Source: Blastochloris tepida (GTDB lineage: Bacteria; Pseudomonadota; Alphaproteobacteria; Rhizobiales; Xanthobacteraceae). Taken from it: a DNA stretch of 64,000 nt. The translations under genes and the position numbers were made by a program. The notes beneath the pieces are model-generated. The model worked only from the letters and a program-made list of their open reading frames with translations, had not been told where the DNA came from and did not search any database. Positions within the stretch are counted from its first letter, which is position 1. Each line of letters begins with the position of its first letter. The stretch lies in NCBI RefSeq assembly GCF_003966715.1, contig NZ_AP018907.1, positions 1,352,001 through 1,416,000 of the forward strand, written 5' to 3'. Shown here piece after piece: positions 1 to 13,304 of this stretch.

Positions 1-29
1 TCTCCGGCTTGGTCAGCCGGAAACCGCAT
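1..29 (+). repeat. Fragment of three-hairpin intergenic repeat (third hairpin)
   Basis: The first 29 bases match the last hairpin of the element seen in full at 3127-3253: a CCGGCTTGGTCAGCCGG stem-loop followed by AAACCGCAT. The rest of the copy would lie left of the window. Confidence 0.55.
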
Positions 30-40
30 AAACGCAAATC

Positions 41-67
41 GCGGCGGCGCCTGTGTGACGCCGCCGC
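41..67 (-). terminator. Possible terminator hairpin downstream of the 100-aa secreted protein
   Basis: A perfect 9-bp GC stem (GCGGCGGCG with CGCCGCCGC) and 9-base loop lie 50 bases beyond the minus-strand gene at 117-419. On the minus strand the stem is followed by GATTTGCGTTT, a weak T-rich tail, so function as a terminator is only plausible. Confidence 0.4.
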
Positions 68-116
68 GGGTTCGGGTCAAGAGAGCCGGGCGCGCCGCGA
101 CCCTCCAGGAATGAAC

Positions 117-419
117 TCAGCGCCAGCCGCAGACGCGCCGGCCGCGATGCCACCAGCACACCCAGCGCTGCCGCACGCACACGCGCCGGCCCCAGCGGTC
201 CCAGTAGCACCGCGTGCGCCACTGCACGGTCTCGGCCTTGACGGTGTCCCGCTCCGGGCGGAACAGCGCGTCGAAGGCGGTGGCGTCCTCGGGGGTGCCG
301 GGCGGAATGGGCGAGGCGGGTGCGGCCTCGGCGCTGCCGGACCCGATCGTGAGGGCAGCGGCGCCGAGGGCCACGGCGCCGAATACGAAGGCGCGGCGAT
401 GAAGCTGGGTGTCGGTCAT
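117..419 (-). CDS. Small exported protein with Tat-like signal and Trp/Arg/Cys-rich tail
   Basis: This 100-aa protein has a twin-arginine-like start (HRRAFVFG, residues 8-15), a hydrophobic run to about residue 28 and an AEA cleavage-like site, so export to the periplasm is likely. The C-terminal 33 residues are extreme: five Cys-free basic blocks alternate with Trp and four Cys (RCYWDRW, RRVCVRQRW, WWHRGRRVCGWR). Similar short proteins with Trp/Arg-rich ends are frequent in Hyphomicrobiales but I know no function for them. AGGAG stands 6 bases before the ATG, which fixes the start. It is transcribed alone. Confidence 0.7.
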   Translation of the reverse strand: MTDTQLHRRAFVFGAVALGAAALTIGSGSAEAAPASPIPPGTPEDATAFDALFRPERDTVKAETVQWRTRCYWDRWGRRVCVRQRWVCWWHRGRRVCGWR

Positions 420-503
420 GGCGTGCTCCTGCTTTCTCCTGCTGCGGGGATGTTGTCCTTACTTTCCGCAACGCCCTGCGATCCGAATGGTTCGACGAAT
501 AGT

Positions 504-1841
504 TCACACCTCGAATTCCCCTTCGGCAAGACCTTTATCCCCCTCGGCAAGACCTTTTTCCGCTCCGGCAGCGTCCTTGCGGAAGGGGGTCTCGGCCAGC
601 AGCGTCCGGCCCAGATCGGCGACATAGGCGCGCTCGCGGGCCAGATAGCTGGCGATTCCCCGGCGCAAGGCGGGATCGGCGATGTAGTGGGCCGAATAGG
701 TGGGGACCGGCAGATAGCCGCGCGCCAGCTTGTGCTCGCCCTGGGCGCCGGCCTCCACCCGCGCCAGGCCGAGTTCGATCGCCGCCTCGATGGCTTGGTA
801 GTAGCAGAGCTCGAAGTGCAGGAACGGGTGGTGCTCGATCGCGCCCCAGTGGCGGCCATAGAGCGTGTCGGAGCCGCGGAAATTGAGGGCGCCGGCGATC
901 CAGCGGCCGCCCCGCCGCGCCATCGCCAGCACGATGGTGTCGGCCATGCGCGCCGACACCAGCGAGAAGAAATCGCGGGTCAGATAGGGCCGGCCCCATT
1001 TGCGCGAGCCGGTATCCATGTAGCAGGCGAAGAAGGCGTCCCACACCTCCTCGGTGAGGTCGGCGCCGGTGAGGCGGCGGATCTCGATGCCGGGGGCCAG
1101 CGCTTCGCGCCGCTCGCGGCGGATGGCCTTGCGCCTGCGGGCGTTGAGGTCTTCGAGGAACGCCTCGAACGACGCATAGGCGCGGTTGGTCCACTGGAAC
1201 TGCCGGTCGGTGCGCAGCAGCCAGCCGGCCGCGCCGAGTTCCAGCCATTCGCGCCCGGTCGGGAAGGTGACGTGCACCGAGGAGGCGCCGGTCTGGCGGG
1301 CGAGCGCGGTGAGGGCGCCGGCGAGGCGGCGGCGGACCGCGACGGCGTCGTGGCCCGGCCGCACCATCAGGCGGGGACCGGTGCACGGCGTGAACGGTAC
1401 CGAGACCTGGAGCTTGGGGTAGTAGCGGCCGCCGGCCGCCTCGTAGGCCTCGGCCCATCCCTGGTCGAACACATACTCGCCGCGCGAATGGGTCTTCAGA
1501 TAGGCCGGAACGGCACCGACCAGGGTGCCGGCCGCGTCGCGCGCGATCAGGTGGACGCCGGCCCAGCCGGTGCGGGGGACGGCCGAGCCGGACTCTTCGA
1601 GCGCCGACAGAAATTCGTGCGACACGAAGGGGTTGTCCGCCGTCTCCTGATAGGCGGGATAAAATTCGTCGCCGGCCGGTTGGGCGTCGGCCGCCGGCAA
1701 TACCGGCGCGCGGGCGCAGGCGTTCCACGCGGCGGGGTCGAGGCCGCGCAGGCTCGGCACCGCCTCGATGGTCAGGTCCGGCAGGGCGGCGGCGGTCGAG
1801 GGATCGTTCGTCGTGGTTTTGTTCGTTGTGGGTGCTTTCAT
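504..1841 (-). CDS. GNAT-like N-acyltransferase (COG3146/DUF482 family)
   Basis: The 445-aa protein matches the COG3146 predicted N-acyltransferase family, whose members resemble FemAB-type peptidyltransferases. Typical stretches include the N-terminal NPFVSHEFLSALEESG and the C-terminal HYIADPALRRGIASYL. No membrane segment or signal is visible, so it should be cytoplasmic; the acceptor is unknown. The last residues carry a short imperfect repeat (EKGLAEGDKGLAEG) encoded by a repeated 18-bp motif at 528-564. Start is the ATG at 1841; a longer frame is not supported. Function beyond acyl transfer is inferred from the family only. Confidence 0.8.
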   Translation of the reverse strand: MKAPTTNKTTTNDPSTAAALPDLTIEAVPSLRGLDPAAWNACARAPVLPAADAQPAGDEFYPAYQETADNPFVSHEFLSALEESGSAVPRTGWAGVHLIARDAAGTLVGAVPAYLKTHSRGEYVFDQGWAEAYEAAGGRYYPKLQVSVPFTPCTGPRLMVRPGHDAVAVRRRLAGALTALARQTGASSVHVTFPTGREWLELGAAGWLLRTDRQFQWTNRAYASFEAFLEDLNARRRKAIRRERREALAPGIEIRRLTGADLTEEVWDAFFACYMDTGSRKWGRPYLTRDFFSLVSARMADTIVLAMARRGGRWIAGALNFRGSDTLYGRHWGAIEHHPFLHFELCYYQAIEAAIELGLARVEAGAQGEHKLARGYLPVPTYSAHYIADPALRRGIASYLARERAYVADLGRTLLAETPFRKDAAGAEKGLAEGDKGLAEGEFEV

Positions 1842-1890
1842 GGACGGTTCCGGGGGTCACCGCCACTTTACGGCAAAGGCCGCAGCAGGA

Positions 1891-2643
1891 TCATGCCGGT
1901 TTCGGCCGGAAGCCTTCGAAGATCATCTGGTCGGCCCAGCGCTTTGCCCGCGCGCGGTCTTCGGGCGTGCGCACCGTCCAGGTCAGCACCGGCACGCCGA
2001 GCGCGCGCCGGGCGACTTCGGTCGCCACGGTCGGCAGGTCACTCAAGCAGAAGGCGACGAACTGCGGGCGCGACGCCGGCCAGTGCAGCAGATTGCCCAG
2101 CACCTGCTTGCGGATGGCGGAGAGGCCGTTCCATTCGGGATCGGCATAATGGCGCTCGGCGGTGATGCCGCGGACGATACCGGGCGCCAGCGTGCGCAGG
2201 TCGGCGATGGGGGCGGGGTCGAACGACATCAGCGCCAGCGGGCCGCCATAGGCGGCAGCGACCTCGGCGGCGCGCCGCACCAGCGTTGGGTCGCCGTCGA
2301 ACCGGCTCTTCAGCTCGACGATCAGCGGCACGTGCCCCGACACCAGCGTCAGCAGTTCGGAGAACCGCATCATCACGTCGTCGGTGTCACGGAAGCGCAC
2401 GGCCTTGAGCTCGGCGGCGGTGCGCGCGGCGACCGGCCCGGTGGCCTCGGTCAGGCGGTCGAGGGTGTCGTCGTGGAACACCATCGCCTCGCCATCGGCG
2501 GAAAGCTGCAGGTCGACCTCGATGGCGTAGCCGGCGGCCGCGGCAGCGGCGCAGGCCGAGAGGGTGTTCTCGATGACGCCGTCGGCGGCGTCGTGCAGCC
2601 CGCGATGGGCGATCGGGCGCGCTGTCAGCCACTCGGGTGTCAT
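1891..2643 (-). CDS. Glycerophosphodiester phosphodiesterase
   Basis: The 250-aa protein is a cytoplasmic-type GDPD (PI-PLC-like TIM barrel) that hydrolyses glycerophosphodiesters to sn-glycerol 3-phosphate and an alcohol. The family signature is complete: AHRGLHD with ENTLSA near residue 12-28, EVDLQLSADG (metal-binding Glu/Asp) near residue 42, and VFHDDTLDRLT near residue 55. No signal peptide is present. Its ATG (2643) overlaps the TGA of the upstream ridA-like gene by one base, so the two are translationally coupled. Confidence 0.9.
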   Translation of the reverse strand: MTPEWLTARPIAHRGLHDAADGVIENTLSACAAAAAAGYAIEVDLQLSADGEAMVFHDDTLDRLTEATGPVAARTAAELKAVRFRDTDDVMMRFSELLTLVSGHVPLIVELKSRFDGDPTLVRRAAEVAAAYGGPLALMSFDPAPIADLRTLAPGIVRGITAERHYADPEWNGLSAIRKQVLGNLLHWPASRPQFVAFCLSDLPTVATEVARRALGVPVLTWTVRTPEDRARAKRWADQMIFEGFRPKPA

Positions 2644-3110
2644 CAGGCGACCTCGAACAGGCCTTCGATCTCGACCAGGGCGCCGAGCGGCAGTTCGGCG
2701 ACGCCGACGGTGGAGCGGGCATGCCGGCCCGCCTCGCCGAACGCCGCGACCATCAGGTCGGAGGCGCCGTTCATCACCTTGGGCAGGTCGGTGAAGCCGG
2801 GGCCGGCATTGATGAAGCCCCCGAGCCGCACAACCCGCGTCACCCGGTCGAGATCGCCGATCGCCGCCTTGACCTGCGCCAGCACGTTGAGCGCGGCGTA
2901 GCGCGCCGCCTCCTGCCCGGCGGCGAGGTCGAAATCGCTGCCCATCCGCCCGGTGTGGCGCAGCGCGCCGTCGGGCGCGAAGCAGAGCTGGCCGGACACC
3001 GTGACCAGATTGCCGGTGCGGACGAACGGCACATAGGTGGCGACCGGTGCCGCCGGAGCGGGCAGGGCGAAGCCCGCCGCGATGATCCTGCCCTCGACCG
3101 TCCCAGCCAT
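2643..3110 (-). CDS. RidA/YjgF family protein
   Basis: The 155-aa protein belongs to the RidA/YER057c/UK114 family of enamine/imine deaminases or related ligand-binding trimers. Visible family features are the SGQLCFAPDG region, the AARYAALNVLAQVKAAIGDLDRVTRVVRLGGFINAG core, and the C-terminal LPLGALVEIEGLFEV. It has the slightly longer form found beside GDPD genes in Rhizobiales. AGGAGG sits 7 bases before the ATG at 3110; an in-frame GTG one codon earlier is too close to it. It is the first gene of a two-gene operon with the GDPD gene. Confidence 0.85.
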   Translation of the reverse strand: MAGTVEGRIIAAGFALPAPAAPVATYVPFVRTGNLVTVSGQLCFAPDGALRHTGRMGSDFDLAAGQEAARYAALNVLAQVKAAIGDLDRVTRVVRLGGFINAGPGFTDLPKVMNGASDLMVAAFGEAGRHARSTVGVAELPLGALVEIEGLFEVA

Positions 3111-3126
3111 CACGTGTCCTCCTCAA

Positions 3127-3253
3127 TGATACGGTTTCCGGTCGATCCCTACGGGATACCGGAAACGGTCTCGCCGAAAACCCCTCGCTTGGGAGCGGGG
3201 TTTTCGGCGATCGGCATACGGTTCTCCAGCCTGATCGGCTGGAAACCGCATGA
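3127..3253 (+). repeat. Three-hairpin intergenic repeat, full copy
   Basis: Three consecutive stem-loops are visible: CGGTTTCCGG with CCGGAAACGG around 3131-3161; TCGCCGAAAACCCC with GGGGTTTTCGGCGA around 3170-3213; and ACGGTT...CCAGCC with GGCTGG...AACCGCAT to about 3251. The same three-part layout recurs at 49042-49160 and 57049-57180, with fragments elsewhere. It sits between the ridA-like gene and the divergent eipB-like gene. Confidence 0.75.
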
Positions 3254-3389
3254 ACCGCCAACCCGTCATGCCGCAAAGTCATCGCGCAGGCGCAGGCGGC
3301 AGGCAAGCCGATTGGCCAATCCGCTTGACGTTGTAGCCGCAGCGGGCCGCAATTATGGTACCGCCACGCTTGTGGTCGGATTCTGGCTC

Positions 3390-4265
3390 ATGAATGCAAT
3401 TTGTCGTGTGGCGGCGCGTGGTGCCGTGGCCCTTGGCCTTGGCCTCGCTGCCGGGATCGCGACCGTGGCGGTGGCGGCCGGGGGAGTGGCGGGCGAGGCG
3501 GTGGCCGACGAGGCGCCGGCCTTCATCGCCCATCGCGCCGTCTACGACCTCACGCTGGACCGTCTGGCGGCCAAATCCTCGGTGCAGGGGGCGCGCGGCC
3601 GCATCGTCTACGAGTTCTCGGGCAATGCCTGCGACGGCTGGGCCATGTCGCTGCGTCAGGTGGTGCAGATCGACAGCGAGGACGGCCAGACGGTGTCCGA
3701 CACGCTGGCGACAAGCTGGGAGGATGTGGCCGGCCGCACCTTCCGGTTCGCCAACCAGAATCTGGTCGACCGAAATGTGCGGGAGATGAGCGAGGGCCGC
3801 GCCGAGCGCGCGGCGGACGGCTCGGTGGTGGTGCAGATCGCCAAGCCGGCCGAGGGCCGGGTCGAGCTCGGCAGCGGCGTGGTGTTCCCGACCCAGCACA
3901 TGCGCCGCCTGATCGAGACCGCGCGCAAGGGCGAGACCATCCTGTCGGTCAAGGTGTTCGACGGCACCGAGGCCGGCCGCAAGGTCTACGACACCATGGG
4001 CGTGGTGGGGCGGGCGATCGCCCCCGGCGCCGAGGGTTCGCTGGAGCCGGTGCTGCGGGTGCCGGAGCTGAAGGACACACGGCGCTGGCCGGTCACGGTC
4101 AGCTATTTCGAGGCGGGGTCGGACCAGCAGACGCCGATCTACACGCTCGGCTTCGAGCTGTTCGAGAACGGCATCAGCCGCGACCTCACGCTCGACTATG
4201 GCGATTTCCGGCTCAAGGGCGCGATGACGACGCTCGACATCCTGCCGCCGACGCCGTGCCGGTGA
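3390..4265 (+). CDS. eipB: EipB-like (DUF1849) cell-envelope integrity protein
   Basis: The 291-aa protein matches DUF1849, whose studied member EipB is a periplasmic beta-spiral protein needed for envelope integrity in Brucella. An N-terminal signal peptide runs to about residue 36 (hydrophobic AVALGLGLAAGIATVAVAA). Family sequences APAFIAHRAVYDL and GRIVYEFSGNACDGW are clear, and two Cys (81 and 290) match the conserved disulfide described for EipB. The ATG at 3390 places the signal directly at the N-terminus; upstream in-frame codons run through the repeat. It is monocistronic and convergent with the hlyD gene. Confidence 0.85.
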   Translation: MNAICRVAARGAVALGLGLAAGIATVAVAAGGVAGEAVADEAPAFIAHRAVYDLTLDRLAAKSSVQGARGRIVYEFSGNACDGWAMSLRQVVQIDSEDGQTVSDTLATSWEDVAGRTFRFANQNLVDRNVREMSEGRAERAADGSVVVQIAKPAEGRVELGSGVVFPTQHMRRLIETARKGETILSVKVFDGTEAGRKVYDTMGVVGRAIAPGAEGSLEPVLRVPELKDTRRWPVTVSYFEAGSDQQTPIYTLGFELFENGISRDLTLDYGDFRLKGAMTTLDILPPTPCR

Positions 4266-4333
4266 GGCGTTGCCGGTGAGGCGGACCCGCTCGCCCGGCG
4301 GAGGGTTTGCCACCGTCCAAGTCTGCGGCCTCG

Positions 4334-5692
4334 TCAGCGCTCGGTGAAGATGACGTCGAGCGAGTTGAACACCGGCTTCAGCATGTAGCGCACGATCGAC
4401 TTCGAGCCGGTCACGATCTGGGCCTGGACCACCATGCCGGGGGTGATCGGCCGGGTCAGCGCGCCGCTGCCGACGCTGTCGCGGGCGAGGCGGATGAAGG
4501 CGCGGTAATAGGGCTCGCTCGGCGCCTGTCCCGGCAGCGGGATCTGGCCCGCCTGCGGCATGAAGGCCGAGGCTGAGATGTATTCGACGCTGCCCTGGAC
4601 CGTGCCGTAGAGTGCGCTGTCGAAGGTGGTGAACTTGATGATGGCCGGCGAGCCGACATTGATGTGGCCGCTGTCGCGCGCCTCGATGCGCACGTCGGCG
4701 ATCAGCTCCTGCGGGGCCGGCACGATGCGGGCGACGGTGTCGCCGGCCTTGATGACCTCGCCGGCCGATTTCGGCCCGAGTTCCAGCACGTAGCCGTCGG
4801 ACGGCGCGCGCACCAGCAGCCGCTCGACGCGATCGGACAGCTTGGCAAGCTGCTGCTGCGTCTCGGCGAGATCGGAGGCGGCCTTCGCCCGTTCCTCGGC
4901 GATCTTGCGCTCGGCGTTGGCCCGTGCCTCGGTGCGCGCCTTCTCGGCCTCGGTGGCGGCGTCCTCGGCGGATTTGAGCTTGGCTTCCAGATTGGCGATC
5001 TCGCCCTCGGCCTTCTGCGCCGCGAGCTTCCATTCCAGATAGGTCTTCTTCGAGGTGTGGCCGTTGACGATCAGCTTGCTCTGGATGGCAAGCTGCTCGC
5101 GCTGGGTCTCGGCCTGCAGCCTTGCGTTCGCCAGATCGCTGCGGACGCCGGCAAGCTCGCTCTGGCGCTGCGCGATGCGGGCCGCGAGCGTGGCGTCCTC
5201 GCTCTGGCGCTGCTGGACGGCGCTGGAATAGAGCTGCACCTGTTCCGACACCAGCGCGGCGTGCTCTGGCGCGACGTTGCTGAAGTTCGGCACCTCGCCG
5301 CGGCTCAGCGCATTGAGCCGGATCAGTTGCAGCGTGAGGGCGACCTTGCGGCTTTCGAGCTGGTTGCGGTCGCTTTCGCTGCCGACCGGATCGAGGCGGA
5401 TGACCGGGTCGCCGGCCTTGACGGTCTCGCCTTCGCGCACCAGCACCGCATCGACGATGCCGCCCTCGAAATGCTGCACGTTGAGGATCTGGCCGCGCGG
5501 CACGATCTGGCCGGTGACGGTGGTCGTCTCGCGCACGCTGGTCAGCGTGCCCCAGGCGATGGCCAGAACGACGAAGCCGGACAGCACATAGAGCGTCCAC
5601 GACAGCACCTTGGGCGGACGCCCGTCTTCGAGGACCAGCGGCTGGGTCAGCCGGTGCGTGAAGTCATTGTGGGTTCGCCGTCGACGCAACAT
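4334..5692 (-). CDS. HlyD-family type I secretion membrane-fusion adaptor
   Basis: The 452-aa protein is a periplasmic adaptor for type I secretion. It has one N-terminal membrane segment (about residues 30-50, VLSWTLYVLSGFVVLAIAWG), a biotinyl-lipoyl half (VLVREGETVKAGDPVIRLDP), a long alpha-helical hairpin rich in Gln/Glu/Ala/Lys (about 130-290), the second lipoyl half and beta-barrel (RVERLLVRAPSDGYVLEL), and the usual HlyD C-terminus. ATG at 5692 is preferred to a TTG three codons upstream. It lies 107 bp downstream of the two ABC genes and likely completes their inner-membrane complex; no TolC-type gene is in the window. Confidence 0.88.
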   Translation of the reverse strand: MLRRRRTHNDFTHRLTQPLVLEDGRPPKVLSWTLYVLSGFVVLAIAWGTLTSVRETTTVTGQIVPRGQILNVQHFEGGIVDAVLVREGETVKAGDPVIRLDPVGSESDRNQLESRKVALTLQLIRLNALSRGEVPNFSNVAPEHAALVSEQVQLYSSAVQQRQSEDATLAARIAQRQSELAGVRSDLANARLQAETQREQLAIQSKLIVNGHTSKKTYLEWKLAAQKAEGEIANLEAKLKSAEDAATEAEKARTEARANAERKIAEERAKAASDLAETQQQLAKLSDRVERLLVRAPSDGYVLELGPKSAGEVIKAGDTVARIVPAPQELIADVRIEARDSGHINVGSPAIIKFTTFDSALYGTVQGSVEYISASAFMPQAGQIPLPGQAPSEPYYRAFIRLARDSVGSGALTRPITPGMVVQAQIVTGSKSIVRYMLKPVFNSLDVIFTER

Positions 5693-5799
5693 GGGGCTCA
5701 ACCGACTGTATGCGCGGAAGTTTCACTCAAATTACGCTGGAAACGTTAACGGGGCGCAACCGATCCGCGATGGTGACTTCTTTCCCGCGGCCCTGCGCA

Positions 5800-8085
5800 T
5801 CAGGCCGCGAGCTTGTCGATGATCTTGTCGGGCGGACCATCGGCGATGATCAGTCCCTCGTTCAGCACGACGACGCGGTTCGCCAGCCGCATGAAGGCCG
5901 GGCGGAAGGTGACCATGATGACGGTCGCCGTGCCCTTCAGCGCCGTGATCCTGTCCATGAAGGCGGCGGCGGCGGTCGCGTCCATGCTGGCGGCCGGATT
6001 GTCGAGCAGATAGACGGGCGCCTTCTTGACGAAGCAGCGGGCGAGCCCGATGCCCTGCTTCATCGGCTCGGACAAGTGGTCGAGCCGGTTGGAGGTGAGG
6101 CGGGTCTCGATGCCCTCCGGCAGCAGCGGATGGTTCACGTCGACGCCGGCGGCAGCCAGCGCCGCGACGATCTCGGCATCGGTGGCGTCGGGCTGGGCGA
6201 GACGCAGATTCTGGGCGATGGTGCCGTAGAAGAAGTGCGGCTTCGGCGGCAAATAGGCCACGGCCGAGCGCCAGTCTGCCGCCGGGATCTGGCGCAGGTC
6301 GAGCCCATCCACCAGCACCGCGCCGCCGAGCGGCGGATAGAGCCCGAGAATGAGCTTGAGCAGGGTCGATTTGCCGGCGCCGCTCGGGCCGGTGATCGCG
6401 ATCACCTCGCCGGGCTTCACCTGAAGCTGGACGCCGCGCAAGGCCGGCTCGGTGCGCCGCGGATAGCGGAAGACGAGGCGGTTGAGGGTCAGCTGGCCGC
6501 CGAACTCGCGCCGGAACGAGCGCGTGCCGAGCGGCGCGTGCTCGCCCTTGATGGTCATCAGCCGGTTGAGCTGCTGATAGGTCTGCAGCGCCTGCTCCAG
6601 CCGGCTGGAGAACAGGAACGTGGTCTGCAGCGGCGACATCACCCGCCACACCAGCGCCATGGCGCCGACCAGCGCGCCGGGCGACATCGTGCCGTTCATC
6701 ACCGACAGCGTGCCGAACAGCAGCGTCGCCACGCCCGCGAGGCTGCCCAGCGTCTGGGCGAGGTTCTGCAGCACGCTGTTGAGGAACTGCAGCCGCCGGT
6801 TCTTCTTCGCCCATTCGGTGAGAAGGTCGCGGTGGCGGGCGATCCAGATGCTCTCGGCGTTGAGGTCGCGGATGGCCTGACGCTTGCCGAGGATCTCGCG
6901 CAACAGGAGTTGGAGCCGCTGGCGGACGTCGCCGGCCGCGTTGGTGCGGTGCTTGAGCAGCGGCAGCGTGACTGCCGACATCAGCGCGAACACCACCAGC
7001 AGCGACGCCGGAACCCAGACGAGATGGCCGCCCCAGATGGCGATGGCGATGAGGAACACCACCACGAACGGGATGTCGATGATCGCGGTGACCAGGGCGC
7101 CGGTGAAGGTGTCGCGCAGCGTCTCGAACTGGCGCAGGCGCGCAACCTGCGTGCCGATCGGCGCGGTCTCGACCATCGCGATCGGCATCTGCAGCAATTG
7201 GCTGAACGCCGACATGGCCGAGAGCGCATCGATGCGCGCGCCGAAATAGGCGATCATTCGCGCCCGCACGTAGCGCAGCGCCAGATCGGTCGCCAGCACG
7301 ATGGCGGTGCCGATCGCGAGCAGCATGACGATGCCGGGCGAGCGCGTGCCGATGCCGAAATCGTAGATCTGGATCACGAAGAACGGCACCGCCAGCGCGG
7401 CCAGATTGATCAGCAGGCTCAGCATGATCGCCCCGGCGATCGCCGGCTTGAAATGGCTGATGACACTGCCGAACCAGTTCTTCTGGGCCTGCGCCGCGTC
7501 CGACTCGTCCACCGACAGCCGGCGGACGGGATAGAGCGTGCCCTTGAGCGCGGACGCCTCGAAATTGCGGCTCTTGCGGCTGTCGCCGTCGAAGACCGCG
7601 AACGTTCCATCGGCATTGCGGTCGACGATCACCGACAGGGCGCCGGTGCCGGTCTCCAGCAGCGCGGGCAGCATGTCGTCGTGAAGGCGGCCCGCCTTGA
7701 GGCGGCGGGCATCGCTGGCGAATCCCAGGCGGGCGAGGACGCCGCGCAGATCCGCGATATCCGCCACGCGGTCGAAATAGGGCAGGGCCTCGCGCACGGT
7801 GCGGGCATCGCCGGCCCAGCCCAGGGCAGCGAGCAGCGGCGCGAGGCAGGCCTCGGCCGCGGTGGCCGGGGCAACGACCGCATCGATCTCGTCAAGCGGA
7901 TCGCCGCCGGTGCCGCCGTCCGCTGTCGGCGTCCCGGGCGCGGCCGGTGCGGTGTCCGGCTGGGCGAAGGCGCGCTCGAGGCGGGCCATGCTGGCGTGGA
8001 CCGCATGGTCGCCCGTGGCCGCAGGGCGCGGCCGCAGCGCCTGCAGCGCCGCCTCGTCGAGCGGCTGGCGGGGCTCGTCGATCAT
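5800..8085 (-). CDS. Type I secretion ABC exporter subunit A, with C39-like domain and degenerate ATPase
   Basis: The 761-aa protein has a non-catalytic C39-peptidase-like region (about 85-200, no catalytic Cys), an exporter membrane domain (about 215-500) and a C-terminal nucleotide-binding domain. Walker A is normal (GPSGAGKST, about 566), but the signature LSGGQ is replaced by LSEPM (about 670), the catalytic Glu after Walker B is Asn (LLDNPAA, about 690), and the H-loop His is Phe (VTFRPAF, about 720). By family it should move an unfolded substrate with its signal retained. It overlaps the partner subunit by 4 bp (ATGA). Two unlike ABC subunits plus HlyD recall the RtxB/RtxE/RtxD layout of MARTX systems. 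Confidence 0.85.
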   Translation of the reverse strand: MIDEPRQPLDEAALQALRPRPAATGDHAVHASMARLERAFAQPDTAPAAPGTPTADGGTGGDPLDEIDAVVAPATAAEACLAPLLAALGWAGDARTVREALPYFDRVADIADLRGVLARLGFASDARRLKAGRLHDDMLPALLETGTGALSVIVDRNADGTFAVFDGDSRKSRNFEASALKGTLYPVRRLSVDESDAAQAQKNWFGSVISHFKPAIAGAIMLSLLINLAALAVPFFVIQIYDFGIGTRSPGIVMLLAIGTAIVLATDLALRYVRARMIAYFGARIDALSAMSAFSQLLQMPIAMVETAPIGTQVARLRQFETLRDTFTGALVTAIIDIPFVVVFLIAIAIWGGHLVWVPASLLVVFALMSAVTLPLLKHRTNAAGDVRQRLQLLLREILGKRQAIRDLNAESIWIARHRDLLTEWAKKNRRLQFLNSVLQNLAQTLGSLAGVATLLFGTLSVMNGTMSPGALVGAMALVWRVMSPLQTTFLFSSRLEQALQTYQQLNRLMTIKGEHAPLGTRSFRREFGGQLTLNRLVFRYPRRTEPALRGVQLQVKPGEVIAITGPSGAGKSTLLKLILGLYPPLGGAVLVDGLDLRQIPAADWRSAVAYLPPKPHFFYGTIAQNLRLAQPDATDAEIVAALAAAGVDVNHPLLPEGIETRLTSNRLDHLSEPMKQGIGLARCFVKKAPVYLLDNPAASMDATAAAAFMDRITALKGTATVIMVTFRPAFMRLANRVVVLNEGLIIADGPPDKIIDKLAA

Positions 8086-9845
8086 GCGGCGCCTCGTTGA
8101 GGTTCGGGCAGGGGGGCGCTGCGCTCGCAGGCGACCGTGCCGTCGCCGACGCGGATGATCAGGTCGGCAGTGGCCAGCAGCGAGGGCCGGTGGGTTGCGA
8201 CGAGCACGGTCATGTCGTCGCGCAGCGCGTGCAGGGCCTTGATCAGGCCGGCCTCGGCGGTGCGGTCGAGCGCGGAATTGGCGTCGTCGAGTATGAGGAT
8301 CGACGGCTCGCAGGCGAGCGCGCGCACGATCGCCACCTGCTGGGCGACCGAGACCGGAATGTCATCGACGATGCCCTCGCCGAGCTGGGTCTCGAAGCCG
8401 TCCGGCAATAGATTGATGGTGCGGTCGACGCCGACGAGGCGGCAGGCGCTGCGGGCGGCGGCGGCGCGCTCGGGCTGGAACAGCGTCAGGTTTTCCAGAA
8501 GCGTGCCGCGGAAGATGACCGGGACGGGACCGACATAGGCGATCTGGGCGCGCACGCGGGCGAATTCGGGGTCGGTGGTCGCAATGCCCGAGATCCGCAC
8601 GCTGCCGGCGCTCGGGGTAATCTCGCCGCGCAGCAGATTGAGCAGCGTCGAACGGCCCGAGCCGTCCTCACCCTTGACGCCGACAATGGCGCCGGACGGG
8701 ATCTCCAGCGTGATGCCGCTGAACAGCGGCGGGCTATCGGCGGAATAGGCGTAGGCGGCATCCGCGCAGACAATGGGGCCTTCGGGCGCCTCGCGCCGGG
8801 CGCCGCTCAGCGTGCCGACCGGACCGGACAGCAGCGTGCGGACCTCGCTGCGGCGGTGGCCCACCGTCTGGTTGTCCATCCACAGCGAGATGGTGCGCAG
8901 CAGCGGCTGCAGGATCTGGCCCGACAGCATGGTGCAGCAGGCGAGCGCGCCGATCGACATCTGGTCGTTGATGACGTGGACGGCGCCGATCATCACCACG
9001 ATGACCTGCGACAGATTGCCGAACAGCACCGCCGACGATTGCGCGGCCTGCCCGGCCAACATGGATTTGGCGGTGATCTCGGCGACGGCCTGCTGCAGCC
9101 GCTCGAAGCGGCGCTGCATCTGCGGCTCGATCGCCATCGCCTTCACCGACAGGATGCCGCTCAGCACCTCGGTGACGAAGTCGTACTTCTTGTTGTCCTG
9201 GACGCTGCGCCGTTCGATCACGTCGCGAAACGCGCGGCTGCGGTAGATCGACAGCGCGGCGAACAGCAGGAACAGCGAGACCGGCACCAGCACCATGGTG
9301 CCGCCGACCAGCGCCATGACGCCGAGCCCGAGCGCGACGAACGGCAGCTCGAGGGCGACGGTGCGCGACGGTCCGGCGTGATAGTCGCCGAGCGCGCCGA
9401 TGGCGCCGTAGCGGTTGAGGTGGGTGGCCACGGGGTCGCGCTCGACCGTGCCGGCGGGGGCGGCGAGCAGGCGGGCCACCGCCTCGTCCGACACCTGCAG
9501 CACGAACTGCGTCGACAGCCAGGACAGCAGCGCCGAGCGCGCGCACTTGAGGATGAAATCGAGCGCCAGCGCCACGCACAGGCCGATGAACAGGGCCAGC
9601 AGCGTTTCCTTGGCGTGGTTCGGGATGATCCGGTCATAGACCTGCAGGATCGTCAGCGGCAGCACGAGCGCCAGCAGGCTGGTGACCAGCGTCGCCAAAT
9701 AGATGGCCGGCGGCAGGCGCGGCTCGGCGATCGGCTTGCCGGCGAAGATCGACCGGAAGCGAACGGCGCCCGCGCCCGCCACGGGCGCGCTGGCGGATGT
9801 TTCTGCCGACTGGGCATCTGCCGACTGGGCAACTCGACGCATCAT
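8082..9845 (-). CDS. Type I secretion ABC exporter subunit B, with degenerate ATPase
   Basis: The 587-aa protein has an exporter-type membrane domain (about 50-340) followed by a nucleotide-binding domain. Walker A carries Arg in place of Lys (GEDGSGRST, about 392); the position of the signature LSGGQ reads IPVSV before AQQVAIVRAL (about 495); the residue after the Walker B Asp is Asp rather than Glu (ILDDANSALD, about 515); the H-loop His is kept (ATHRP). It lacks the C39-like N-domain of subunit A. The two probably form a heterodimer. Start is one of two tandem ATG codons (9845 or 9842); a GTG precedes them. No strong Shine-Dalgarno is seen. Confidence 0.83.
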   Translation of the reverse strand: MMRRVAQSADAQSAETSASAPVAGAGAVRFRSIFAGKPIAEPRLPPAIYLATLVTSLLALVLPLTILQVYDRIIPNHAKETLLALFIGLCVALALDFILKCARSALLSWLSTQFVLQVSDEAVARLLAAPAGTVERDPVATHLNRYGAIGALGDYHAGPSRTVALELPFVALGLGVMALVGGTMVLVPVSLFLLFAALSIYRSRAFRDVIERRSVQDNKKYDFVTEVLSGILSVKAMAIEPQMQRRFERLQQAVAEITAKSMLAGQAAQSSAVLFGNLSQVIVVMIGAVHVINDQMSIGALACCTMLSGQILQPLLRTISLWMDNQTVGHRRSEVRTLLSGPVGTLSGARREAPEGPIVCADAAYAYSADSPPLFSGITLEIPSGAIVGVKGEDGSGRSTLLNLLRGEITPSAGSVRISGIATTDPEFARVRAQIAYVGPVPVIFRGTLLENLTLFQPERAAAARSACRLVGVDRTINLLPDGFETQLGEGIVDDIPVSVAQQVAIVRALACEPSILILDDANSALDRTAEAGLIKALHALRDDMTVLVATHRPSLLATADLIIRVGDGTVACERSAPLPEPQRGAA

Positions 9846-9848
9846 CAC

Positions 9849-10130: not shown

Positions 10131-13100
10131 ATGTCGATGGCCGGCCCCACCACCTCCGGTGCTCCGCTCAACGATGCGGATTTGCAGCTTCTGGCCACGC
10201 GTCAGGCGGCGGGGCAGGCCGCCGATGGCGGGCCGTTCGGCGCCGACAAGCGGATCGCCGTGGCCGATCACGGCCCGGGGGCACAGCCGGGGGCGACCGG
10301 CGGCGACCAGCTCACCAACCCCAATCTCCATTACGGCACGCAGTGGGACGACGGCCGCGGCGGCGGGCAGGCCGATGCGCACGCGGTGCCGCACCCGGCG
10401 GCGGCGCCCGAGGCGACGCCGATGGTCGAGAGCCCGTCCATCCAGCCGCTGGCCACCCCGGCCGCCGCCGACACGGCGGGCGAGGGCGTGCGCGGGTGGG
10501 ACGGGGATGCCGGCGGCCTGCCGGCGGCGCGCGGCGCGGGCGATCCAGCGATATCGGGTGGCCCTCTCGGCTCCTCCGGCCTGCAGCCGGGCGCCGATCC
10601 GGGCTTAGGCTCTCCGGGGAACATCACCGCCACCGGCCCGGCGGCGCAGGGTGCTGCGGCTGGGGCGGAGCTGCCGGCCGGCCCGGTTCTGCCGCAGGAG
10701 ACCGGCGAGGGGGCGGGATCGAATGCGCTGGCGCCGGTCATCACCTCCGGCGAGGGCGGGCAGGCGTCGATCAGCCTCGCCGAGAACACCGCCGACGTGG
10801 CGACCATCACCGCCAGCGATGGCGATGCAGGCGCGCGACTGACCTACACGATTGCCGGGGGCACTGACGCGGCGCTGTTCACGATCGATCCGGAAACCGG
10901 ACACCTCGTCTTCAAGAGCGCGCCGGACTTCGAGCGCCCCGCCGATGCCGATGGCGACAATATCTATCATGTGACGGTGCAGGTCTCCGACGGCATCCAC
11001 ACCGACACCCAGGCGCTCGCCATCTCCGTCACCAATCTGCAGGACGAGGCGCCGACCGGGGCGGTGATGACGGGCGGCGTGATCGCCGAGAATTCGGCGG
11101 CCGGGACGGTGGTCGGTACGGTGACCGGCACTGACCCCGACGCGGGCGCGGTGCTGAGCTATCAGATCGTCGGCGGCGATGCCGACAAGTACCAGATCGA
11201 TGCCGCGACCGGCGTGGTATCGCTGAAGGACGGCGCGAAGCTGGATTTCGAAGCCGATGCGGCCGACAGCATCACCGTGCGCGTGACCGACCAGACGGGC
11301 CTTTCGGTCGAGCAGACCTTCGACATCAAGGTCGCCGACGTCAACGAGGCGCCGACCGGGGCGGTGATGAAGGGCGATGTGATCGCTGAGAATTCGGCGG
11401 CCGGCACGGTCGTCGGTACGGTGAGCGGCGCCGATGCCGACGCGGGCGCGGTGCTGAGCTATCAGATCGTCGGCGGCGATAGCGACAAATACCAGATCGA
11501 TGCCGCAACCGGCGTGGTGTCGCTGAAGGATGGCGCGAAGCTGGATTTCGAGGCCGATGCGGCGGACAGCATCACCGTGCGCGTCACCGACCAGACGGGC
11601 CTCTCGGTCGACCAGACCTTCGACATCAAGGTCGCCGACGTCAACGAGGCGCCGACCGGGGCGGTGATGAAGGGCGGCGTGATCGCCGAGAATGCGGCGG
11701 CCGGCACGGTGGTGGGCACGGTGAGCGGCGCCGATGCCGACGCGGGCGACAGACTGAGCTATTCGATCGTCGGCGGCGATGGCGACAAGTACCAGATCGA
11801 TGCCGCGACCGGTGTCGTCTCCCTGAAGGCCGCGACCAAGCTCGACCTCGTGGCCGACACGAGCGCGACGACGGTTTCTGCCGCCAGAAGCGACGCCGTT
11901 TTGACCAGGACGGGCGTGAAGCTCGACTATGAGACGGACGCGGCCGACAGCATCACCGTGCGCGTGACTGATCGGAACGGGCTCTCGATCGACCAGACCT
12001 TCGACATCAAGATCACCGACGTGAACGATGCGCCGAGCGGCCTCACGGTTGTCGGCGGAACCGTCCAGGAGGACGTTGCTTCCGGCGGCACCATCGGCAA
12101 AGCGTCTGCGGCGGCGGGCAGCCTGGCGGCGACGCTCGCCGGCATCGATCAGGATGCGGGTGACAAGCTCAGCTATTCGATCGTCGGCGGCGACAGCGCG
12201 AAATACGAGATCCTCAACGGCAACGAGATCCATGTCCGGGCCGGCGTGAAGCTGGACTACGAGACCGACCCGAGCGACTCGATCATCGTGCGCGTCACCG
12301 ACAGTCACGGCGCCATCTATGACCGCAACGTGGTGATCCAGGTCGGCGATTATGTGGGGAGCTTCACCGGCACCAGCGCGGCCGACAAGGTCACCGGCAC
12401 GTCCGAACAGGATGTCATCAGCACCGGCGGCGGCAATGATGTCATCACCGGCGCCGCCGGCAACGACCGGATCGACGGCGGTGCCGGAACCGACACCGTG
12501 GTCTATTCGGGCGCCAGCACCAACTATGGGTTCACGCTGAATGCCGACGGCTCGGTGACGATCGGCGACGGCCGGAGCGGCTCGCCCGAGGGCGCGGACA
12601 CGGTGGTGAATGTCGAGACGTGGCAGTTCTCCGACAAGACCGAGACGCTGATGACCGGGACCACCGGCGACGACATGCTGAAGAGCACCGCAGGAAACGA
12701 TCTGGTTCTCGCCGGCGACGGAAACGATCTGGTCTACGGCTCCGGCGGGCTCGACATCCATGATGGCGGCGCCGGCAATGATACGATCGATTATTCCGCG
12801 CTGTCCTACAAGATGACGATCGATCTCGATCAGGGGCTCGGCTACGTCACCGGATATGTCGAGGGCGGCGATCGTGTCCTCAATTTCGAGAATGCGGTGG
12901 GCGGCAATCTGGCCGACACGCTGATCGGCAACGCCGGCGACAACCGGCTCGACGGCGGCGCCGGCAATGACACGCTGACCGGTGGTCAGGGCAACGACAC
13001 GCTGATCGGCGGCCAGGGCAGCGATCTGTTCGTCTATTGCGTGGGCGACGGCAACGACAGCATCAATGGCGGCGCCAACAGCGGCGGCGCGAGCTGGATC

Positions 13101-13304
13101 GACCAGATCGACCTCAGGGGCGGCACCGAGGCGCTCGGCACCTATGGCGTCGACTGGACGGTCTCCGTCACCAGCGGCGCCATCGCTTCGGTGGATGCGG
13201 CGAAGCACGAGATCAAGCTGTCGGCGGATGCGGACGGGGCGATCCACATGCAGGACGGCTCGACGGTCAGCTTCTCCGACATCGAGAAGATCACGTGGGC
13301 GTGA
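10131..13304 (+). CDS. Secreted cadherin-repeat/RTX adhesin, likely type I secretion cargo
   Basis: The 1057-aa protein has no Sec signal. Residues 1-205 are low-complexity, rich in Ala, Gly and Pro. From about 210 to 740 there are cadherin-like repeats of about 100 residues (AENSAAGTVVGTV, LSYQIVGGD, YQIDAATGVVSL, DSITVRVTDQTGLS). From about 755 there are RTX nonapeptides (GGGNDVITG, GGAGNDTLTGGQGND) that bind calcium, then a C-terminal STVSFSDIEKITWA tail typical of type I substrates. Cadherin plus RTX is the architecture of calcium-dependent biofilm or cell-surface adhesins. ATG at 10131 follows GGAGA. It is divergent from the ABC/HlyD genes, which likely export it. Confidence 0.85.
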   Translation: MSMAGPTTSGAPLNDADLQLLATRQAAGQAADGGPFGADKRIAVADHGPGAQPGATGGDQLTNPNLHYGTQWDDGRGGGQADAHAVPHPAAAPEATPMVESPSIQPLATPAAADTAGEGVRGWDGDAGGLPAARGAGDPAISGGPLGSSGLQPGADPGLGSPGNITATGPAAQGAAAGAELPAGPVLPQETGEGAGSNALAPVITSGEGGQASISLAENTADVATITASDGDAGARLTYTIAGGTDAALFTIDPETGHLVFKSAPDFERPADADGDNIYHVTVQVSDGIHTDTQALAISVTNLQDEAPTGAVMTGGVIAENSAAGTVVGTVTGTDPDAGAVLSYQIVGGDADKYQIDAATGVVSLKDGAKLDFEADAADSITVRVTDQTGLSVEQTFDIKVADVNEAPTGAVMKGDVIAENSAAGTVVGTVSGADADAGAVLSYQIVGGDSDKYQIDAATGVVSLKDGAKLDFEADAADSITVRVTDQTGLSVDQTFDIKVADVNEAPTGAVMKGGVIAENAAAGTVVGTVSGADADAGDRLSYSIVGGDGDKYQIDAATGVVSLKAATKLDLVADTSATTVSAARSDAVLTRTGVKLDYETDAADSITVRVTDRNGLSIDQTFDIKITDVNDAPSGLTVVGGTVQEDVASGGTIGKASAAAGSLAATLAGIDQDAGDKLSYSIVGGDSAKYEILNGNEIHVRAGVKLDYETDPSDSIIVRVTDSHGAIYDRNVVIQVGDYVGSFTGTSAADKVTGTSEQDVISTGGGNDVITGAAGNDRIDGGAGTDTVVYSGASTNYGFTLNADGSVTIGDGRSGSPEGADTVVNVETWQFSDKTETLMTGTTGDDMLKSTAGNDLVLAGDGNDLVYGSGGLDIHDGGAGNDTIDYSALSYKMTIDLDQGLGYVTGYVEGGDRVLNFENAVGGNLADTLIGNAGDNRLDGGAGNDTLTGGQGNDTLIGGQGSDLFVYCVGDGNDSINGGANSGGASWIDQIDLRGGTEALGTYGVDWTVSVTSGAIASVDAAKHEIKLSADADGAIHMQDGSTVSFSDIEKITWA
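11049..11948 (+). repeat. Three tandem 300-bp cadherin-coding repeats
   Basis: The phrase GCGCCGACCGGGGCGGTGAT recurs at 11050, 11350 and 11650, an exact 300-bp period, and most of each unit is nearly identical at DNA level. The third unit diverges after about 11825 and carries an extra stretch of about 81 bp before the next GCGCCGAGC junction at 12031. Near-identity implies recent duplication or gene conversion. Confidence 0.85.

What the first reader, a model, noticed from the sequence alone, without database searches (positions are those of the whole stretch)
5800..9845. Type I secretion ABC pair in which both ATPase sites look broken
Read directly: subunit A keeps Walker A but has LSEPM for LSGGQ, Asn for the catalytic Glu, and Phe for the H-loop His. 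Subunit B has Arg for the Walker A Lys, IPVSV at the signature position, and Asp for the catalytic Glu. In a heterodimer each site combines Walker motifs of one chain with the signature of the other, so both composite sites are degenerate. Known heterodimeric exporters keep at least one good site. The open frames, retained His in B and coupled start/stop argue against pseudogenes, so a distinct energetic mechanism or a new exporter class is possible.
Basis: partly seen in the sequence, partly recalled or inferred. Interest (0 to 1): 0.72.

Follow-up and report, generated by a model that had tools for sequence, protein, structure and literature searches.

The report
Paired exporter with noncanonical ATPase sites
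A photosynthetic bacterium carries a two-subunit protein exporter whose ATP-using sites all depart from the standard pattern, and relatives indicate that this odd state is old and kept by selection rather than recent decay, so it offers a natural test of how such pumps are powered.

Summary
A and B form a B-A-HlyD operon divergent from a cadherin/RTX protein (S). The genome is a Blastochloris; B. sulfoviridis has the same operon and states.

The 'canonical orthologs' refuter did not appear: of 81 loci with both subunits, none has SGGQ in either chain. In 66 of 81, A keeps Lys/Gln/Glu/His. In the window's clade A has lost Glu (0 of 99) and nearly always His (2 of 99), while B has Arg for the Walker A Lys (106 of 106) but keeps His (106 of 106) and mostly Glu (101 of 106). 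NBD dN/dS is 0.04-0.21. So this is an old, selected state, not pseudogenes.

My reading: a heterodimeric type I exporter in which A's site became an ATP-holding site and the only candidate for residual hydrolysis moved to B's Arg-containing site; the window's B, with Asp for Glu, is among the most degraded. ATP-gated export without hydrolysis is not excluded.

Also found: the neighbouring adhesin-like proteins share an N-terminal motif N-[ILV]-H-x-G (32 of 55), absent from 12 control RTX proteins.

The parts
5800..8085 (-). subunit A: ABC half-exporter, 761 aa, with an N-terminal C39-like region, TMD and NBD
8082..9848 (-). subunit B: ABC half-exporter, 588 aa, TMD and NBD, no C39-like region
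4334..5701 (-). HlyD-type membrane fusion protein, 455 aa
   Evidence: TIGR01843 331.6 bits against a cut-off of 208.65
10131..13304 (+). S: divergent cadherin/RTX protein, 1057 aa, likely substrate
   Evidence: PF00028 and PF00353 over cut-off; three 300-nt repeats at 11044-11943
10323..10337 (+). NLHYG, residues 65-69 of S: N-terminal motif shared with proteins next to related exporter pairs
6364..6390 (-). A Walker A GPSGAGKST (intact)
6238..6252 (-). A Q-loop LPPKP (Pro at the Gln column)
6061..6075 (-). A signature LSEPM
5998..6009 (-). A Walker B LLDN (Asn for catalytic Glu)
5899..5910 (-). A H-loop TFRP (Phe for His)
8646..8672 (-). B Walker A GEDGSGRST (Arg for Lys)
8520..8534 (-). B Q-loop VGPVP (Pro at the Gln column)
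8346..8360 (-). B signature IPVSV
8283..8297 (-). B Walker B LILDD (Asp for catalytic Glu)
8184..8195 (-). B H-loop THRP (His kept)

Best explanation
A and B are the two halves of a heterodimeric type I secretion ABC exporter that, with HlyD and an outer-membrane channel encoded elsewhere, secretes the divergently encoded cadherin/RTX protein S. It belongs to a family of paired exporters in which neither subunit has a consensus signature. In most of the family subunit A supplies the one good set of Walker A, Q-loop, catalytic Glu and His. In the window's clade roles have shifted: A still has its Walker A Lys but lost the catalytic residues, so site 1 probably holds ATP without splitting it, while B keeps the Glu-His pair behind a Walker A in which Lys is fixed as Arg. 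Export would then run on ATP binding plus slow hydrolysis at B's unusual site, perhaps helped by calcium-driven folding of S outside the cell. Shown here: gene order, substitutions, their conservation, selection, the shared motif in S-like proteins. Inferred: heterodimerisation, that S is the substrate, ATP holding at site 1, residual hydrolysis at site 2, the folding ratchet. In the window itself B has Asp, so its hydrolysis may be very slow.
For: B-A-HlyD order recurs in relatives (L051, L052, L053, L055, L056, L057; L147, L148, L149, L150), beside a divergent adhesin-like ORF in most loci with enough upstream DNA. A has K/Q/E/H complete in 66 of 81 loci, B in 15 of 81, neither chain in 12 of 81 (window included). 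Where A keeps Glu, B's fourth signature residue is Gly in 65 of 69 and B's Walker A residue is Arg in 0 of 69; where A lost Glu, 2 of 12 and 9 of 12. Window clade: A Glu 0 of 99, His 2 of 99, Walker A Lys 99 of 99; B Arg 106 of 106, Glu 101 of 106, His 106 of 106, D-loop Asp 106 of 106. Non-redundant sets: B His 31 of 31 in the clade against 29 of 49 in B partners of A chains that keep Glu. Tree: all 29 rows of a clade supported at 99 lack A's Glu, and 22 of 23 rows of a nested clade supported at 100 lack His; the window is inside. NBD dN/dS by NG86: 0.097 (A) and 0.214 (B) between the two Blastochloris; 0.070 and 0.109 between two genomes of one Bradyrhizobium-type genus. Both chains model as ABC exporters (mean pLDDT 83.4 and 82.0) with HlyB as top Foldseek match.
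Against: No function was measured. The window's B has Asp, so even the candidate catalytic site is reduced. The coupling of A and B losses rests on few events: 2 or 3 independent pairs on the tree, sign test p not below 0.5. Exceptions: L108 lost A's Glu but keeps B Lys; L069 and L071 have Arg in B but Tyr at its His; L057 and L085 lost B's fourth Gly while A is intact; L105 and L121 lost A's Walker A Lys. The loci were found by a pattern on A's own H-loop (H, F or N), so A's His counts in those loci are biased; the protein lists are the best 120 of 161 and of 587. Lys-to-Arg in P-loops is often taken to spare binding and stop hydrolysis (recalled), which would favour the non-hydrolytic rival.
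Confidence: 0.5

Rival explanations
1. ATP-gated conduit without hydrolysis: nucleotide binding at A's intact Walker A and B's Arg site closes and opens the pair, and the work of export comes from calcium-driven folding of the RTX and cadherin parts of S outside the cell.
For: No consensus catalytic set is left in either window chain. Walker A Lys in A is kept in 99 of 99 clade members. S has RTX repeats and cadherin domains. A paper on RTX folding as a ratchet of translocation exists (Bumba 2016; title seen in the reference list of PMC11026475). PMC7756269 (section 7 read) says Met at the Glu position seems to block hydrolysis and that Asp sites split ATP too slowly to sustain transport.
Against: B's Glu and His are almost invariant in the clade, hard to explain if nothing is ever hydrolysed. 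Without hydrolysis it is unclear how the dimer would reset.
Confidence: 0.2
2. A and B work only as part of a larger assembly energised by an intact ABC dimer encoded elsewhere, since HlyB systems are reported to contain three ABC transporters.
For: The genome has a type I ABC with canonical motifs next to an HlyD-like ORF (L059). [quoted passage not shown] title seen in the reference list of PMC11026475).
Against: No third ABC exporter is part of the conserved cluster in the related loci read. The operon has its own HlyD. Gammaproteobacterial relatives of the pair keep a full Walker set in A.
Confidence: 0.12
3. Not an exporter any more: a pseudo-ATPase pair that regulates or assembles another secretion system, as the sulfonylurea receptors regulate a channel.
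For: Degenerate catalytic residues with maintained fold and selection.
Against: TMDs are conserved, the MFP and an adhesin-like ORF stay linked, and the S-like proteins keep their shared motif in the degenerate clade (window NLHYG, L064, L065, L147 NLHHG).
Confidence: 0.1
4. Recent decay: the genes are losing function.
For: The window pair is more degraded than its relatives (Pro at both Q-loops, Asp in B). Presence is patchy: 6 of 391 genomes of the family, and absent at this place in a third Blastochloris genome.
Against: Intact frames, the same states in two species, low NBD dN/dS, near-invariant Arg, His and Asp positions in the clade.
Confidence: 0.05

Closest known systems
HlyB-type and LssB/LapB-type type I secretion ABC exporters
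   Same: TMD-NBD fold, C39-like N-terminus in A, operon with HlyD, RTX/cadherin protein nearby
   Different: two different half-exporters; neither has LSGGQ; scores well under the NCBIfam cut-off for LssB (478 and 330.8 against 693.1)
Heterodimeric exporters with one degenerate site (TM287/288, TmrAB, TAP)
   Same: two unlike NBDs with composite sites; gammaproteobacterial relatives have a full Walker set in A and Asp in B
   Different: in the window's clade no site is consensus, and B rather than A keeps the Glu-His pair
Vibrio four-component RtxB-RtxD-RtxE system with TolC elsewhere
   Same: two ABC proteins and one MFP divergent from the substrate gene, channel outside the locus (PMC3034196, passages)
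   Different: sequence kinship and the site motifs of RtxB/RtxE were not tested here
ABCG5/G8 degenerate site
   Same: Arg for the Walker A Lys together with a changed signature (PMC7756269, section 7)
   Different: ABCG5/G8 is discussed there as having one degenerate site, and is not a type I secretion protein

Membership tests
ABC exporter (ABC_membrane + ABC_tran) | both Pfam domains over the gathering score in each chain | tested here: met
   A 80.4 and 93.9 bits, B 91 and 63.3 bits
ABC exporter (ABC_membrane + ABC_tran) | consensus LSGGQ signature | tested here: not met
   LSEPM and IPVSV; SGGQ in 0 of 81 paired loci
TIGR03375 LssB-type T1SS permease/ATPase | score over the curated cut-off of 693.1 bits | tested here: not met
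   A 478, B 330.8 bits; best-scoring model for both, but below cut-off
Heterodimeric exporter with one consensus and one degenerate site | one composite site with all consensus residues | tested here: not met
   window: site 1 K/P/N/F with IPVSV, site 2 R/P/D/H with LSEPM
Heterodimeric exporter with one consensus and one degenerate site | A and B form a heterodimer | not testable with these tools
   inferred from the operon and paired conservation
Type I secretion system | HlyD-family adaptor in the operon | tested here: met
   TIGR01843 331.6 bits over 208.65
Type I secretion system | outer-membrane factor available in the genome | tested here: met
   PF02321: 4 matches in two open frames, over cut-off; not in this operon
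Type I secretion system | adjacent RTX substrate | tested here: met
   S: PF00353 89.1 bits over 23; that S is exported by this system is inferred
C39 peptidase / C39-like domain | catalytic Cys-His-Asp or recognised C39-like fold in A's N-terminus | tested here: inconclusive
   whole-chain structural alignment to HlyB spans model residues 75-760; the N-terminal piece alone has no PDB sequence match; C80 nearly invariant in 49 sequences
RtxBDE four-component system | sequence kinship of A and B with RtxB and RtxE | not tested
   only the gene arrangement was compared, from PMC3034196

The most novel reading that the evidence does not exclude
A natural protein exporter that moves a large adhesin without ATP hydrolysis: two ABC half-proteins use nucleotide binding alone as a gate, recognise an N-terminal N-[ILV]-H-x-G peptide, and draw the work from folding of the substrate outside the cell.
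Probability: 0.18. Interest if true: 0.85.

Novelty: new variant of a known kind. Interest (0 to 1): 0.6.

Why it matters
Heterodimeric ABC exporters with one dead site are well known and are explained as division of labour. A clade in which neither site is consensus, conserved over many genomes and under purifying selection, is a natural experiment on how little of the ATPase machinery an exporter needs, and on whether the catalytic role can pass from one half to the other. The shared N-terminal motif in the neighbouring adhesin-like proteins, if it is a recognition signal, would be unusual for type I substrates, whose signals are usually placed at the C-terminus (recalled).

Tried and rejected
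Acid relocation. In A the loss of Glu often goes with Glu at the Q-loop (75 of 99), which suggested that the acid had moved. On the tree this is essentially one shared change (3 independent pairs, b the same way in 0.8, sign test p 1), and members with neither acid exist (the window, and rows such as P0027, P0028, P0064), so it is not claimed.

Coupling of A and B losses tested on the tree: too few independent events, so it is given as a pattern and not as a proven correlation. The Fisher values ignore kinship and are not used as evidence.

N-terminal A motif: many alphaproteobacterial A chains have N-x-VH near the start, reminiscent of the S motif; not in the gammaproteobacterial chains looked at, so not interpreted.

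RTX scan of the related loci found clear RTX or long repetitive ORFs in only 15 of 80; most fetched contigs end upstream of B, so the composition-based view was used instead. One row so included (L134) does not look like an adhesin and was kept in the count of 55.

The S motif was seen by eye before it was counted, so the counts are descriptive. Of the 12 control RTX proteins, nine are from the window's genome, three from genomes with a canonical exporter, and two of these three (L061, L062) are cut at their start.

Rows dropped: L066, L068, L072, L063 and L148 as duplicates, L135's partial B, loci lacking A or B. Near-identical loci remain among the 81 (for example L098, L099, L113). L058's B holds N runs and was left out of A2 and of the NBD model. 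The 'A keeps Glu' set was selected for Glu and Lys.

Literature: ten searches listed no paper that I recognised as describing a type I exporter with both sites degenerate or this motif; subscription papers are mostly not held.
Full report
What is there. On the minus strand lie B (8082-9848), A (5800-8085) and a HlyD-family adaptor (4334-5701); divergent on the plus strand, 282 bases from B, lies S (10131-13304), with cadherin and RTX domains. A and B overlap by ATGA. A carries an N-terminal extension that aligns with the C39-like part of HlyB in the structural comparison (model residues 75-760); B does not.

The observation. Composite site 1 (A Walkers with B signature) is K, P, N, F with IPVSV; site 2 (B Walkers with A signature) is R, P, D, H with LSEPM.

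Relatives. Orthologous B-A-HlyD clusters were read in B. sulfoviridis and in other genomes. A scan of one genome per species gave 231 relatives, of which the best 80 were kept; these span alpha- and gammaproteobacteria and Magnetococcales. The pair is patchy near home: 6 of 391 genomes of the window's family, 3 of 47 genera. In a third Blastochloris genome (G001) synteny holds to about window position 4269 and then diverges, with no match to the cluster in the stretch read.

Site states. In 81 loci with both subunits (window and B. sulfoviridis included) SGGQ is in neither chain; Lys, Gln, Glu and His are all present in A in 66, in B in 15, in neither chain in 12. Gammaproteobacterial pairs typically show a full set in A with an L-[SP]-E-G-V signature in B, and Asp at B's Glu, much like known exporters with one degenerate site. 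In the window's clade, taken from protein searches (best 120 of 161 and of 587 hits; clade defined by my BLAST score thresholds of 650 and 520 bits), A has Lys in 99 of 99, Glu in 0 of 99 (Asn in 79) and His in 2 of 99 (Phe 84, Tyr 11); B has Arg for Lys in 106 of 106, Glu in 101 of 106, His in 106 of 106 and Ser at the fourth signature place in 106 of 106. After thinning to 85% NBD identity: A 33 rows, Lys 33, Glu 0, His 2; B 31 rows, Arg 31, Glu 28, His 31. For comparison, B partners of A chains that keep Glu have His in 29 of 49 and Glu in 31 of 49. So the catalytic pair is kept in A outside the clade and in B inside it.

History. A tree of 92 A rows with the trait columns left out (quick method) puts the window inside a 29-row clade supported at 99 in which no row has the catalytic Glu, and inside a nested 23-row clade supported at 100 in which 22 rows lack the His. 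Of the 12 paired loci in which A lost Glu, B has Arg in 9; of the 69 others, in none. Because this is mostly one lineage, formal tests on independent pairs have no power.

Selection. NG86 dN/dS of the NBDs is 0.097 (A) and 0.214 (B) between the two Blastochloris, and 0.070 and 0.109 between G382 and G367, the latter matching a named Bradyrhizobium MAG record. YN00 gives 0.038, 0.050, 0.122 and 0.123. dS differs between the methods (for A 0.17 against 0.49), so exact values are uncertain, but no estimate is near 1.

Structure. AlphaFold2 models of A and B have mean pLDDT 83.4 and 82.0, and HlyB is the top Foldseek match for both. Fold says nothing about activity.

The S motif. Divergent adhesin-like ORFs of 54 loci and the window (55 in all) were compared. 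N-[ILV]-H-x-G occurs in the first 150 residues of 32 of 55, against a mean of 0.09 (highest 2) in 1000 shuffles and 0 of 228 downstream windows; a looser form occurs in 43 of 55 against 3.71 in shuffles and 16 of 228 downstream. In 46 thinned N-termini the figures are 27 and 34. In 31 of the 32 the motif lies 43-69 residues after the first Met of the open frame. Twelve control RTX proteins have the strict form nowhere and the loose form in the first 200 residues in 2; two of the twelve lack their start. Gammaproteobacterial rows have variants such as QNIQGR and QNIF. A role in recognition by the C39-like region of A is a guess.

Mechanism. Site 1 keeps Walker A and D-loop residues and should still bind ATP; with Asn and Phe it should not split it. 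Site 2 keeps His and, in most of the clade, Glu, behind an Arg. A review states that Asp sites still hydrolyse, but too slowly to sustain transport, and that ABCG5/G8's degenerate site has Arg for the Walker A Lys (PMC7756269, section 7 and passages). I therefore favour a role switch with slow hydrolysis at site 2, and keep the non-hydrolytic gate with outside folding as the boldest rival. Vibrio RtxB and RtxE show that a type I system can need two ABC proteins (PMC3034196, passages).

Genome context. There are two open frames with outer-membrane factor domains, three LapG-like peptidase genes, many RTX matches and at least one type I ABC with canonical motifs beside an HlyD-like ORF (L059), so help from an intact exporter cannot be excluded from sequence.

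Verdict. Observation confirmed; interpretation partly supported; a new variant of heterodimeric type I exporter, with the energy source open.

Noticed in passing
window about 3126-3252: A stretch of about 125 bases matches dozens of dispersed places in two other Blastochloris genomes: an interspersed repeat.
   Followed up: no
window 11044-11943: Three 300-nt direct repeats in S, the first two 93% alike, cadherin-domain units; B. sulfoviridis aligns here in several registers.
   Followed up: partly
L105 and L121: A second lineage in which A lost its Walker A Lys (Ala) and B's signature lost the fourth Gly, while B keeps Lys, Gln, Glu and His: the reverse arrangement.
   Followed up: partly
L149 (G369) and L150 (G192): More distant paired exporters (about 37% in A) in the same family, with other substitutions (L149: Asp at A's Glu, Ala at its His).
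   Followed up: partly
N-termini of many alphaproteobacterial A chains, e.g. L064, P0034: A recurring N-x-VH followed by a predicted helix near the start of A, resembling the S motif.
   Followed up: no
G000:C1:1956345, 124317, 684033: Three LapG-like (Peptidase_C93) genes in the genome, which may act on surface adhesins.
   Followed up: no
window 1-4268: FemAB-like, GDPD and EipB-like genes flank the cluster and are shared with both other Blastochloris genomes.
   Followed up: partly
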